From Spirochaetales bacterium (GTDB taxonomy: Bacteria; Spirochaetota; Spirochaetia; Sphaerochaetales; Sphaerochaetaceae), in NCBI GenBank assembly GCA_018433865.1, contig JAHDQJ010000006.1, forward strand, positions 248,001-312,000: DNA of 64,000 bases, written 5' to 3'. The position numbers were made by a program, and so were the translations under genes. The notes beneath the pieces are model-generated. The model had not been told where the DNA came from and made no database searches. It was given only the letters and a program-made list of their open reading frames with translations. Within the stretch, counting starts at the first letter, position 1. Each line of letters starts with the position of its first letter. Positions 12,201 to 17,124 of this stretch are shown in pieces.

Positions 12201-13814
12201 TCAACACGTACCGTTCGCCCGTGCAACTCGCAGACGTGCCATGCGGACCATGCAGATCAAATAGTTGTGTTCTGACCGGTTCTTTGCCTGTTCCGCCCTG
12301 TGTTCCAAAGTAGCTACATCAAGGAGCCAGTCAGTCCTGAGTTTTCCCATCCCAAGGAAAGCCTTCAACCACATCATGTGATTCTCCGGAAGTTGTTTGC
12401 TTGACTCCACCTCAATGATCTCATTGACCAGATCATCATACCGTGGGAATCGCATGGTTGCGCTACTGTCCGAATAATACAGCTCCTGTACACATAATCC
12501 TTCCTGGTTATCAAGGAATCTCCCATCATCCTCGACGGTTTCCATGAGATACAGGAGGAACAGGCTGGCAAGGTCCTTCCCTTCGGATTTCCTCACGATA
12601 CGACCCAGGCGTTGGACTCGTTGCCGTTCGGCTGAGGTTCCGGATGTAATGATTCCGATGTCAGCTGCAGGAACGTCGAATCCCTCGTCAAGAGCTTTGC
12701 AGCACACAAGTATTCTGGCCGATGCAAACTTGTACCGCTCCATGGCTTGACTCTTCGCTTGTTCTCCCATCTGGCTATGATACCGCACTACCTCCCCAGG
12801 GTATCGTGCTTCCAGCATCAGAAAAAGTTCTTCTGTCTGACGTATCCTTTCCGTGAAGATGATGATCTTCGAAGTGGGATCCGCTGCGTCGATGATGTCG
12901 AGCGTACAATCTATCCGGATGGTTGACTCATGAAGCACCGCTCTCCGCTTATACAGGAGAATCAGCAGTTTCCTCGCATCCGAAGCCATGACCATATCCT
13001 GTGAGCGGGCCACGCGACGCACCACCATGAGAAACTCCTGTCGGTCGATATGTTTGGGCATGAGCCTCTTTTTCAGTCGGTTTGTCAGTTTGTTTATCGC
13101 GAATGTGAGTCGTTCATAGAGATCCAGGTCATTGGGAGGCAATGCTATGCCGACCCGATAGAGTACGCATCCGGTGATGATCTGTTGGCGAATTGCATCA
13201 GAGAAATCGTAACTGAAGATCAGGGGGCCCAAGGCAGGAACGAGAATTCTTTCGAAATCCTCTGTCTGTGGGGTGGCGGAAAGACCGATGGTGTACAACC
13301 TATCCGATTGTTCCTTCCGCAATCCGGGAATGAACTCGAAGATCCTTCTGTTCTCCTCGCTTGCATAGTGGTGACACTCGTCGGCAATGATCAATACCGG
13401 AGCTCCTGAGCGAAGCAATGCAAGCATATGCAAGGAAAACGTTTGCCTGGCTGAGTTGATGACATAGAGCATGATCTTCCTGTCAGGCGAATCTTTATGA
13501 CTCCCCTGCCAAATGCCGATGTCCTTTCGAGAGATTCCCAAGGAACCCCCTTGTTCCAAGATCACATTTCTCCATTGCTTGACCATGAATAGTTTCGGAA
13601 GGATGATTCGGACCTTCAAGCATCCTCCATGAACCTTGTCAAGTTCACGAAAGCCTCCCAATGCCATGAAAGTCTTTCCGGCTCCGGTGACGACTTGCAC
13701 GATTCCACGCCCACCGTGTTCCAACCACGTTTCGATGCACTCTGTCTGCCATCGATAGGGTGATAGATCCACGGCAATTTCCTCCCCGGTACGGCTTTTA
13801 TACTGTGGTATCAT
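12201..13814 (-). CDS. Superfamily 2 DEAD/DEAH-type helicase (RadD-like)
   Basis: This 537-residue helicase has Walker A VVTGAGKT (about residue 40), motif II DECHH, motif III LSATP, and in the second RecA domain IIIFTER, GFDVPAADI and motif VI QRVQRLGRIVRKS. The N-terminal YRWQTECIETWL is a Q-motif-like segment. It is transcribed away from a three-gene ATPase operon that begins about 70 bp beyond its start. A TATAAT box for it lies on the minus strand at 13843-13838. No good ribosome site precedes the ATG, so the message may be nearly leaderless. I infer that it is the helicase component of the adjacent system. Confidence 0.88.
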   Translation of the reverse strand: MIPQYKSRTGEEIAVDLSPYRWQTECIETWLEHGGRGIVQVVTGAGKTFMALGGFRELDKVHGGCLKVRIILPKLFMVKQWRNVILEQGGSLGISRKDIGIWQGSHKDSPDRKIMLYVINSARQTFSLHMLALLRSGAPVLIIADECHHYASEENRRIFEFIPGLRKEQSDRLYTIGLSATPQTEDFERILVPALGPLIFSYDFSDAIRQQIITGCVLYRVGIALPPNDLDLYERLTFAINKLTNRLKKRLMPKHIDRQEFLMVVRRVARSQDMVMASDARKLLILLYKRRAVLHESTIRIDCTLDIIDAADPTSKIIIFTERIRQTEELFLMLEARYPGEVVRYHSQMGEQAKSQAMERYKFASARILVCCKALDEGFDVPAADIGIITSGTSAERQRVQRLGRIVRKSEGKDLASLFLLYLMETVEDDGRFLDNQEGLCVQELYYSDSSATMRFPRYDDLVNEIIEVESSKQLPENHMMWLKAFLGMGKLRTDWLLDVATLEHRAEQAKNRSEHNYLICMVRMARLRVARANGTC

Positions 13815-13886
13815 TCATGATACTTGCATTGACACGGATTATAGCATAGCATCAAAAATCATTCTTACATGAAAAAGAGGTCGCCG

Positions 13887-14654
13887 ATGGATTATGAGAT
13901 GCTGTATGCACAGACTCAACAGCTTTTGAAAAAGTGGAAGGACACATCTTCCTTGATGGCAAAATATCAAAGGAGCTTGGCAAAGGCATTCGAATCGGGA
14001 GATCTCAAGGCCGCGAACAGGGATATCGAGTCAGTGACAGCAGTTGCAAGAGAAGCTTCCGATATGCTCGGACTGATGGAACACACGTTGGATGGATTTG
14101 ATCCCAAAGCATATCTGGAGAGTGGTGATTACACTGAGCATCTGCTCGCAGCATGTCGTGAGCAAGGTGTCGATGTAGTCGGTACGTTTCCAAACTTTGA
14201 GATGTTCCCTTTCAAAGTCAGGATCGATGTGGAAAATCAGGATATCTATCTTGATCGGAAGAAGATTTCTTGCATGAGGCCGCAGCATTTTGTACAGACG
14301 GTCAAGACGGGCAGGGATCGCCTGATGAAGGTTTCGTTCAATGCCAGTCAATTCGTTCACGAATTGTCCACTGTATATGATATCGCGGTGATGAAGCTCG
14401 GCAAGCATGCGGATGCAGACATATACTTGAGCACTCTCTATAAGTTCTTGGTCCCGATGAGTCGTGCACGGAAGGAGTATGACCTTCAAAGCTTTGCGTT
14501 CGATCTGGCCAGATTATATGACGCGGAACCGGTGATGACGAAAGATGGCCGATCCTATCAATTCGGGCCGAGCAGACAGAATGCGAAGGCCATCAGGATC
14601 TTGGATCGGGAAGGTCATGAAGAGTATTTGGCCACGATTCGATTCTATGCCTGA
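13887..14654 (+). CDS. Hypothetical protein, first gene of the helicase/ATPase system
   Basis: This 255-residue soluble protein is not recognised. Residues 1-75 are predicted helical and coiled-coil-like (LYAQTQQLLKKWKD, KYQRSLAKAFESGD). A mixed middle region follows (DVVGTFPNFEMFPFKVRID, DIYLDRKKISCM), then a charged helical part and a C-terminal stretch ending YLATIRFYA. I use the ATG at 13887 because AAGAGG lies 6 bp upstream; an in-frame ATG at 13869 has none. The stop overlaps the ATPase reading frame by a few bases. It occupies the place held by the TerB-like gene in Shango-type loci, but I see no TerB motif. It could be a scaffold or DNA-end-binding subunit. Confidence 0.78.
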   Translation: MDYEMLYAQTQQLLKKWKDTSSLMAKYQRSLAKAFESGDLKAANRDIESVTAVAREASDMLGLMEHTLDGFDPKAYLESGDYTEHLLAACREQGVDVVGTFPNFEMFPFKVRIDVENQDIYLDRKKISCMRPQHFVQTVKTGRDRLMKVSFNASQFVHELSTVYDIAVMKLGKHADADIYLSTLYKFLVPMSRARKEYDLQSFAFDLARLYDAEPVMTKDGRSYQFGPSRQNAKAIRILDREGHEEYLATIRFYA

Positions 14655-14671
14655 TGCGTGCGGGAGGTTGC

Positions 14672-15922
14672 ATGGAAACAGGAACTAGTGCGGGGTATCT
14701 GGATCAGCATAATTCGACCATAGTCAGACTGACACAAGGTGAGGCTCCGGAAGGAGATTCCCTCCTTGCGCAACTTTCAGTGGGAACAGACTTCATCGGT
14801 GATTTCTTGCGGGACAGGTACCTCCGGGAATTCCTCCCGGCAGGCGGGAGCAAGATAAAGTTCCTGACGGGACAGCCGGGAAGTGGCAAGACACATACGT
14901 TGCATATGATTTCCATGATGGCGAGACAAGAAGGATTCGTCACCATACGATTCTCAGCGAGAAACACTTGGTTGCATGATTTCAAGGAAATCTACCTTGA
15001 GATACTCAGGCAATCGGATCTTGATGCATTGCTGGCTTCTTGCAGTCGAATCATCATCGAATCACTGGGATTCGATCCCAACGATATTCCCGAAGGTACC
15101 ACATTCATCGATTACTTGGGACAACGGGGACAAGGTGATGCGCTGACTCGACGCGAAATTCGGCTTCAATTGAGAAAGTTGTTCATGGACAACAAACTTC
15201 TGGACAACAATTTCGCACTCGCCTGCAGCCTACTCTGCGGAGGGATGCTTGGGCATCCATTCTTGGAGAACCAAAGCAGAATGACGTTGCTCGGATGGTT
15301 GCATGGTGACAAGTCGATCAAACTGGCCGCCTTGCGACCCTTGGGCCTTTCCGCTTCGCGAGTCACCAAGTTCAATGCCCGTCATATGCTTCGTTCACTG
15401 TCCGAAGTCGTTCGGTTCAGTGGACACAAGGGATTGCTGGTCTGTATCGACAATCTGGAAGTCTTGGTGGATAAGTCCAGCCTGAATCCCATGCATTACA
15501 CGAAAATGAAGCGTGATGATACGTATGAGAGCTTTCGGCAATTGATCGATGACATTGACAATTTCAGGAACATCATGTTCCTCATGGCGTTTGACAAGGC
15601 TCTGTTGGACAATGAGAATACTGGTATCAAATCGTATCAAGCGCTTTGGATGCGGATCCAGAATGAGATTACGGGCGACCGCATCAATCGGTTCAGTGAT
15701 ATCCTGGATCTCGACGCCGTGGCACTGCAAGTATATTCTCCCCAGATGCTCGTTGAGATGTCGAGAAAACTCGCTCAGGTAGTGAATGGCATCGAAGTAC
15801 AGGCACAGCCTATTGACGAGCGGAAGGCTATGGAGGTATTGCGAATGGCACGGCTGGGAGGAGCCTCGATCCCCAGGCTGGTCAATCGCATGACCATGGA
15901 AACCACCGGAGGAGCATCATGA
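14672..15922 (+). CDS. P-loop ATPase, BREX/DUF2791-like, subunit 1
   Basis: This 416-residue AAA-like ATPase has Walker A LTGQPGSGKTHTLH (near residue 75) and a Walker B strand LLVCIDNLEVLV (near residue 260), followed by a regulatory helix and a C-terminal winged-helix-like tail (MEVLRMARLGGASIPRLV). The pattern of hydrophobic strand, long alpha segment and FMAFDKALLDN resembles BrxD/DUF2791 ATPases, but more distantly than the next gene. GGGAGG precedes the ATG. The stop overlaps the next gene in an ATGA junction, so the two ATPases are made together and probably form a complex. Confidence 0.8.
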   Translation: METGTSAGYLDQHNSTIVRLTQGEAPEGDSLLAQLSVGTDFIGDFLRDRYLREFLPAGGSKIKFLTGQPGSGKTHTLHMISMMARQEGFVTIRFSARNTWLHDFKEIYLEILRQSDLDALLASCSRIIIESLGFDPNDIPEGTTFIDYLGQRGQGDALTRREIRLQLRKLFMDNKLLDNNFALACSLLCGGMLGHPFLENQSRMTLLGWLHGDKSIKLAALRPLGLSASRVTKFNARHMLRSLSEVVRFSGHKGLLVCIDNLEVLVDKSSLNPMHYTKMKRDDTYESFRQLIDDIDNFRNIMFLMAFDKALLDNENTGIKSYQALWMRIQNEITGDRINRFSDILDLDAVALQVYSPQMLVEMSRKLAQVVNGIEVQAQPIDERKAMEVLRMARLGGASIPRLVNRMTMETTGGAS

Positions 15923-17124
15923 CGTTCGATTATCCAGCCCGACATATGATAGAAGCATTACGATCCGGCATTCCTTCCCGGGCAGTAGGCCGCTATTTTT
16001 CCGAATCTCGCGGAGAAATCTTGCAAGAGATCATCCACGATCTTGATGGTGTACGTACCAGCGGAGTTTCCAAAGGCAGAGTCATCAATGGCAAGTACGG
16101 CGAGGGAAAGACCCACCTCCTGAATACCGTTTTCAGTCTTGCTCATTCACATAACATGGTGGTATCGATGATCTCTTTGAGCAAAGAGACTCCTTTTGAC
16201 AAGCTGTATCATGTATATAAGAGTATCGTTAACAATACGTATCTGCCTAACCACATACAACCGGGTTTCATGGAAGAATTCGAAGCCTTGACCCCTAGCA
16301 GCCAACAGAGCAATGAATTGTTGCTGTATGCTGCAAAGCAACTTGAGACTGATCGTCTGTACTATGTGCTCAGGGCTTTTCTCAACTCGGACGATCAGGA
16401 TGAGCGTTACTTGCTGCAAACGGATCTTGAGGGAGATTTTGTTGCAAACCTGCAGGTTAAGCAAATCTACGGCAGGATATTCGGAGAGAAGATAAAATTC
16501 TCGGTGAACTTTGTGAAATCTCAGCATTACCAGGATTATTTTGCGTTCTTGAGCCGTTTCTTTCTCAGTTTGGGATACTCGGGATGGGTGTTGCTGTTCG
16601 ATGAGACTGAACTGACCGGGAGACTTGGAAAGAAGACACGTCTGAAAGCCTATGCAAACATGGCCGAGTTCCTCTTCCCCAACAAGAGGTTCTCATCTAT
16701 GTACAGTCTTTTTGCTATCAGCTCCTCATACACGGAAGATGTGATAGAAGGCAAACACGAGTTCGAGAGCTTGCAGGAATGGTATCCCGGTGAATCGGGC
16801 AAACCTATCCGCCTAGTGCTGGAGGCACTGTCCAACTCGACCCAGCTTGTTCCGCTCACAAAATCCGAGATACGTGAAATCGTGCTGCGACTCATTGATT
16901 TTCATGGTCGCTCCTATGCGTGGACACCTCAAGTGGATATTGACGATCTCTTGCAGGTAGTGGATTCGAGCGGATATCTCCTTCGGACGAAAATCCGTTC
17001 TGCCATCGAATACCTGGATCAGTTGTACCAGTACGGAGACGCCGGTTCCTCATCAGTACAGTCGGTCTATAGTGGAACACTCGATGAGGATGATATGCCT
17101 GAGTTGGATGATATCTTGCAGTGA
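15919..17124 (+). CDS. BREX-type ATP-binding protein (DUF2791/BrxD-like), subunit 2
   Basis: This 401-residue protein has the DUF2791 pattern: an N-terminal segment IEALRSGIPSRAVGRYFSE, Walker A GKYGEGKTHLLN (about residue 60), SLSKETPFDKLYHVYKSIV, and Walker B GWVLLFDETELTG (about residue 230). This is the ATPase family found in BREX (BrxD) and in the Shango defence system (SngB). It overlaps the preceding ATPase by 4 bp (ATGA). The C-terminus is acidic. Together with the divergent helicase it defines a candidate DNA-targeting defence module. Confidence 0.85.
   Translation: MTFDYPARHMIEALRSGIPSRAVGRYFSESRGEILQEIIHDLDGVRTSGVSKGRVINGKYGEGKTHLLNTVFSLAHSHNMVVSMISLSKETPFDKLYHVYKSIVNNTYLPNHIQPGFMEEFEALTPSSQQSNELLLYAAKQLETDRLYYVLRAFLNSDDQDERYLLQTDLEGDFVANLQVKQIYGRIFGEKIKFSVNFVKSQHYQDYFAFLSRFFLSLGYSGWVLLFDETELTGRLGKKTRLKAYANMAEFLFPNKRFSSMYSLFAISSSYTEDVIEGKHEFESLQEWYPGESGKPIRLVLEALSNSTQLVPLTKSEIREIVLRLIDFHGRSYAWTPQVDIDDLLQVVDSSGYLLRTKIRSAIEYLDQLYQYGDAGSSSVQSVYSGTLDEDDMPELDDILQ

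What the first reader, a model, noticed from the sequence alone, without database searches (positions are those of the whole stretch)
12201..17124. Candidate undescribed defence system: divergent helicase, unknown 255-aa protein and two BREX/Shango-like ATPases
The last gene is a clear DUF2791-type ATPase, the family of BREX BrxD and Shango SngB. Here it is coupled (ATGA) to a second, more divergent P-loop ATPase and to an unrecognised 255-residue protein, with an SF2 helicase read divergently from about 70 bp away. Shango has TerB-like protein, one ATPase and one helicase; this has two ATPases and no visible TerB domain. It may be a new variant or a new system.
Basis: partly seen in the sequence, partly recalled or inferred. 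Interest (0 to 1): 0.75.

Follow-up and report, generated by a model that had tools for sequence, protein, structure and literature searches.

The report
Paired-ATPase and helicase defence candidate
A four-gene cassette, found in scattered related genomes and in clostridia and made of one unknown protein, two sister ATPases (one of which looks unable to burn its fuel) and a DNA helicase, appears to be an undescribed relative of known phage-defence machines rather than a copy of any of them.

Summary
In detail: four genes at 12201-17124, an SF2 helicase divergent from an unknown 255-aa protein and two coupled ATPases. The set is conserved as a unit: in 101 relatives, helicase and trio co-occur in 10 genomes, with 2 and 2 exceptions (p=2e-10), and it recurs in Clostridia. 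It is not Shango (no SngA, separate ATPase clades, different helicase; both occur separately in three genomes) and not BREX (no PglZ in 16 carriers). The helicase is XPB/PbeA-like without the PbeA nuclease part. Defence is inferred: PADLOC matches are enriched beside the unit elsewhere (13/92 versus 1/127 proteins), but none lies within 5 kb in the window itself. Mechanism untested.

The parts
12201..13772 (-). SF2 helicase, XPB/PbeA-like, 523 aa from GTG 13772 (ORF open to ATG 13814, 537 aa); no nuclease domain found
   Evidence: Pfam ResIII 9e-17, Helicase_C 8e-15; PADLOC PbeA 1e-54 over PbeA 244-633 only; profile best matches XPBII/RAD25 1e-43; start by homologues and Shine-Dalgarno
13773..13886 (.). 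divergent intergenic region, about 114 bp, between the helicase and the operon
   Evidence: sequence; divergent order kept in most relatives; helicase codirectional in L031
13887..14654 (+). uncharacterised 255-aa protein ('U'): N-terminal helical hairpin, then mixed alpha/beta C-terminal part
   Evidence: no significant Pfam/NCBIfam/PADLOC/PHROG match; alignment A1; AF2 model pLDDT 77.6; distant homologues beside other tandem BrxD-like ATPases
14672..15922 (+). ATPase A, PF10923, 416 aa (ORF from 14654)
   Evidence: PF10923 4.9e-32, BrxD 3e-24; clade A of the tree
14870..14893 (+). ATPase A Walker A GQPGSGKT
   Evidence: alignment
15449..15454 (+). ATPase A Walker B Asp-Asn; the usual glutamate is missing (N/D/Q/H in all clade-A copies)
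15919..17124 (+). ATPase B, PF10923, 401 aa, ATGA overlap with ATPase A
   Evidence: PF10923 4.3e-25; clade B of the tree
16090..16113 (+). ATPase B Walker A GKYGEGKT, invariant apart from position 2
16600..16605 (+). ATPase B Walker B Asp-Glu, kept in all copies

Best explanation
A horizontally moving accessory module, most likely anti-invader (phage or plasmid). Its core is a trio: protein U plus two paralogous BrxD-like, ORC/Cdc6-type AAA+ ATPases A and B. The trio works with an SF2 helicase: XPB-like here, BrxHI-like in distant relatives. Proposed mechanism: U binds DNA or senses the invader and holds an A/B hetero-oligomer. A binds ATP but hydrolyses it poorly (structural or gating subunit); B hydrolyses and acts as the switch. 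On foreign or stalled DNA the A/B assembly loads or releases the helicase, which translocates and blocks replication or strips the DNA; no nuclease domain was recognised in the module. Shown by sequence: gene content, conservation as a unit, paralogy, the Walker-B asymmetry, helicase interchange. Inferred: DNA binding by U, hetero-oligomer, helicase loading, and defence itself.
For: Unit conserved in 12 of 101 relatives and in Clostridia; helicase co-occurs with the trio (10 both, 2 and 2 single, 87 neither; p 2e-10); distance matrices of all four proteins agree. Patchy within genera, GC 49.1% against 54.5% for the window, no shared flanking DNA outside one genus. First- and second-position ATPases form separate groups across divergent systems, with the least possible number of changes. 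Walker B: D-[N/D/Q/H] in all 17 clade-A copies, DE in all B, BrxD, SngB and plasmid copies. HMM of the U family finds, in a set of 1370 sequences, no further real ORFs except those upstream of tandem BrxD-like ATPases (the only other hit is a reversed decoy at E 0.001); hhalign 95.6%. PADLOC matches beside the unit 13/92 versus 1/127 in control regions, p 7e-5: Septu, PDC-M19, PDC-M12, PDC-M68, PDC-S01. BrxD-BrxHI as a linked pair with a proposed helicase-loading role: PMC12839542.
Against: No PADLOC match within 5 kb in this window; by locus, the enrichment is modest (7/15 versus 1/15, p 0.035; without PDC-S01 5/15 versus 1/15, not significant); PADLOC PDC families are themselves candidates. 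Control regions came from three genomes only. Three lineages have the trio without this helicase beside it (L026, L067, L106), so the helicase may be dispensable. DD at Walker B (7 of 17 copies) may still hydrolyse. The C-terminal model of U is weak (pLDDT 66) and no fold match was found.
Confidence: 0.5

Rival explanations
1. A non-defence accessory module for DNA repair, replication restart or chromosome maintenance, built from an XPB-like helicase and ORC-like ATPases.
For: Best solved relatives of the helicase are XPB/RAD25 repair proteins; most flanking genes look like metabolic or transport genes; SbcCD-like genes are next door in L014; trio without helicase in three lineages.
Against: Patchy within genera and in different surroundings between genera; enrichment of PADLOC matches beside it; the named relatives of the ATPases are defence proteins (BrxD, SngB).
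Confidence: 0.27
2. A divergent subtype of Shango (or a BREX type-2 fragment), working in the same way with replaced parts.
For: Both ATPases are PF10923 and match SngB and BrxD models; ATPase plus SF2 helicase is the Shango and BrxD-BrxHI layout; Aulosira carries a distant version directly after BREX type-2 genes.
Against: No TerB/SngA in the locus or in 16 of 19 carrier genomes; three carriers hold SngA elsewhere, separately from the unit; SngB is its own 100/100 clade; helicase is PbeA/XPB-like, SngC only E 0.03; no PglZ in 16 carriers.
Confidence: 0.15
3. A plasmid or mobile-element maintenance or transfer function that spread to chromosomes.
For: Distant versions lie on a small non-mobilizable plasmid near ParA and on a conjugative plasmid.
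Against: Close copies sit among genes without recognisable replication or transfer functions; no match in phages, IMG/VR or other plasmids for U or ATPase B.
Confidence: 0.07

Closest known systems
Shango (SngABC)
   Same: PF10923-family ATPase plus SF2 helicase plus an unrelated partner protein; no nuclease recognised
   Different: two paralogous ATPases instead of one, no TerB protein, XPB/PbeA-like instead of SngC-type helicase, mostly divergent helicase gene; both systems occur separately in the same genomes
BREX type 2 BrxD-BrxHI pair
   Same: ORC/Cdc6-type BrxD-like ATPase tied to an SF2 helicase; in the Desulfomonile and Aulosira versions the helicase itself is BrxHI-like
   Different: no PglZ in carriers; ATPases far under the BrxD cut-off (85 and 43 bits, cut-off 350); ATPase duplicated with one copy degenerate; extra protein U
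PbeABCD / Dnd-linked restriction helicases (PbeA, TIGR04095)
   Same: closest helicase models by score
   Different: N-terminal 243 residues of PbeA, where the HKD nuclease would lie, are absent; no PbeB-D or dnd genes recognised in the flanks examined; TIGR04095 130 bits against a cut-off of 600
XPB helicases of archaea and bacteria
   Same: best solved-structure matches of the helicase profile
   Different: far under the XPB equivalog cut-off (65 against 610 bits); different gene partners

Membership tests
Shango | TerB-domain protein SngA | tested here: not met
   U has no TerB or SngA match; hhalign to a Shango SngA 1.2%; no SngA in the window's genome, while genomes with Shango loci ring
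Shango | single SngB ATPase | tested here: not met
   two ATPases, both outside the 100/100 SngB clade
Shango | SngC helicase | tested here: not met
   SngC E 0.033 against PbeA 1e-54
BREX | PglZ present | tested here: not met
   0 of 16 carrier genomes, control genomes ring
BREX type 2 | BrxD at equivalog level and BrxHI helicase | tested here: not met
   85 and 43 bits against 350; BrxHI only 1e-5 on the helicase core
BREX | PglX/BrxX methyltransferase | not tested
   none recognised among the four genes; the genome was not searched for it
PF10923 BrxC_BrxD ATPases | score above the Pfam gathering cut-off | tested here: met
   112 and 89 bits against 22.2
PbeABCD | HKD nuclease fused to SF2 helicase (PbeA) | tested here: not met
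   match covers PbeA 244-633 only; PbeA described as HKD plus SF2 in PMC10853773
Dnd restriction helicase TIGR04095 | score above the curated cut-off | tested here: not met
   130 bits against 600
Anti-phage defence system in general | protects cells from phage or plasmid | not testable with these tools
   only neighbourhood enrichment available
Asymmetric AAA+ pair (as in ORC) | one subunit without Walker-B glutamate, partner intact, forming a hetero-oligomer | tested here: inconclusive
   sequence asymmetry shown; oligomer not testable here

The most novel reading that the evidence does not exclude
An undescribed class of defence system built on a conserved trio (protein U plus a catalytic and a degenerate BrxD-like ATPase) that has paired with at least two different SF2 helicase families and sometimes none, i.e. 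a sensor/loader core with exchangeable motor.
Probability: 0.5. Interest if true: 0.75.

Novelty: new variant of a known kind. Interest (0 to 1): 0.6.

Why it matters
What BrxD and SngB do beside their helicases is unknown; a loader role has only been suggested (PMC12839542). Here the ATPase has been duplicated, one copy's catalytic site altered and the helicase swapped, which isolates the conserved core and makes the loader idea directly testable with few proteins. It would also add a module that PADLOC (2023) and NCBIfam (2026) have no system model for.

Tried and rejected
TerB in protein U: no match, hhalign 1.2%. Nuclease in U or in the helicase: no Pfam nuclease match. Fold of U: Foldseek and VIA-align on the full model find only helical hairpins (helical-bundle Z values near 10-11 are not informative); the C-terminal domain alone modelled poorly and gave no match. 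A winged-helix reading of the C-terminus is my inference only. Weak JetA hit of U (E 0.02) taken as noise. Viral-contig, phage and most plasmid searches were empty. The two further helicase matches in relatives (G069, G052) lie in other surroundings and are not this unit. Direct repeats or attachment sites around the unit: none. Search for the window's own empty site in the same genus gave only a 26% match, not usable. L066 (two PF10923 ATPases plus a helicase) has a 295-aa neighbour that does not match the U family, so it was not counted as the same trio. Literature: no paper found on such a pair or on PF10923 outside BREX/Shango (bioRxiv and most subscription journals are not held).

Full report
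OBSERVATION. The four genes are present. Homologue alignments and Shine-Dalgarno sequences move two starts: the helicase to GTG 13772 and the first ATPase to ATG 14672; the 255-aa start at 13887 stands. The last two genes overlap by ATGA.

FAMILIES. The helicase has ResIII and Helicase_C domains and is nearest to PbeA among PADLOC models (1e-54, but only PbeA residues 244-633) and to XPB/RAD25 among solved structures (1e-43). PbeA is an HKD nuclease fused to an SF2 helicase according to PMC10853773; the region preceding the helicase core in PbeA is missing here. The 255-aa protein, called U here, matches no family significantly.

CONSERVATION AS A UNIT. U was found in 12 of 101 genomes (the window's own and relatives), in two named Clostridia MAGs and one more genome of that order. 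Fetched neighbourhoods show U, ATPase A and ATPase B adjacent in every one, and the helicase beside them, usually divergent, wherever the contig reaches far enough, except L026. In L031 all four are codirectional. The helicase profile is single-copy in carriers; across the 101 genomes it co-occurs with the trio in 10, with two trios lacking it (one of them at a contig end) and two helicases in other surroundings (Fisher 2e-10). Distances between the four proteins correlate with r 0.88-0.95 (Mantel 0/5000). The module is patchy within genera, lower in GC than the window (49.1 against 54.5%), and shares flanking DNA only among members of one genus.

RELATIVES OUTSIDE. A plasmid search with ATPase A led to Desulfomonile tiedjei pDESTI.01 and Aulosira laxa plasmid3. 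Both carry a 279-aa unannotated protein, two PF10923 ATPases and a roughly 700-aa helicase in one run of genes; the helicase there is BrxHI/SngC-like (4e-87 and 8e-98), not XPB-like. The 279-aa protein is a distant relative of U: hhalign 95.6%, E 1e-8, and a profile built from the U alignment A1 alone finds it, plus proteins in L067 and L106, as the only real non-members in a set of 1370 sequences including reversed decoys, the best decoy being E 0.001. All of these sit directly upstream of tandem BrxD-like ATPases, an independent check. In L067 and L106 the trio has no helicase beside it.

THE TWO ATPASES. A maximum-likelihood tree of 44 ATPases separates first-position from second-position copies with the least possible number of changes over five groups; clades A (99/99), B (98/98) and SngB (100/100) are distinct, though deep joins have moderate support and some branches are long. 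So A and B are old paralogues kept in order, not a recent duplication. In clade A the residue after the Walker-B aspartate is N, D, Q or H in all 17 copies, never E; clade B, BrxD, SngB and the plasmid copies all have DE. In the helicase-less L067 and L106 the first ATPase has lost Walker A too. This predicts a catalytic B and a gating or structural A; DD copies might still hydrolyse.

NOT SHANGO, NOT BREX. SngA was searched in 23 genomes: it rings in the four genomes with Shango-like loci, is absent from the window's genome and 15 other carriers, and in three carriers it is found elsewhere, apart from the unit. PglZ is absent from 16 carriers, with controls ringing. Four Shango loci in the same bacterial family have the ordinary SngA-SngB-SngC layout.

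DEFENCE CONTEXT. Within 5 kb of 15 copies, 13 of 92 flanking proteins match PADLOC models at 1e-20 (Septu PtuA/PtuB, PDC-M19A/B, PDC-M12A/B, PDC-M68 with an ABC-3C/SMEK partner, SoFic, four PDC-S01), matches to mad3, also common in the control (6 of 127), not counted; in 15 control regions of three carriers 1 of 127 does (p 7e-5; by locus 7/15 against 1/15, p 0.035). The window copy itself has no such neighbour recognised. Several of these models are candidates only.

MECHANISM. PMC12839542 classes BrxD as an ORC/Cdc6-type AAA+ protein, notes the BrxD-BrxHI linkage and suggests helicase loading. I extend this: U plus an A/B hetero-oligomer forms a DNA-responsive loader; ATP binding by A and hydrolysis by B gate an SF2 translocase. 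No nuclease was recognised, so blockage rather than cutting is the likelier outcome. Every step after the sequence facts is inference.

VERDICT. Real, conserved and not matched by the system models searched; best filed as a new variant of the BrxD-like-ATPase-plus-helicase kind, with defence likely but unproven.

Noticed in passing
L032:5183-10609 (Desulfomonile tiedjei plasmid pDESTI.01) and L035:5010-10404 (Aulosira laxa plasmid3): Same kind of trio with a BrxHI-like helicase; in Aulosira it follows directly after what look like PglZ, BrxD and BrxHI genes of BREX type 2.
   Followed up: yes
L067:5711-8718 and L106:5696-8753 (G068, G742): Trio without helicase whose first ATPase has lost the P-loop entirely.
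   Followed up: partly
L066:5270-13252 (G068): Two PF10923 ATPases with a large helicase-like protein, a 766-aa protein with P-loop and helicase-like motifs (no family search done) and a 295-aa protein unrelated to U by profile: perhaps another undescribed system.
   Followed up: partly
L068, L069, L070, L071: Ordinary Shango loci in members of the window's own family.
   Followed up: partly
L017:6254-7627, L020:12041-13291, L021:3703-5040 and 12955-14223: PDC-S01 (AAA_14/DUF4143-like by eye) ATPases repeatedly next to the unit.
   Followed up: partly
G373:C145:13702-18492: Three SngA matches in a row in very long open frames: possibly tandem or fused TerB proteins.
   Followed up: no
window:35350-36444: Protein that looks by eye like a macro-domain (ADP-ribose) protein; not searched.
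   Followed up: no
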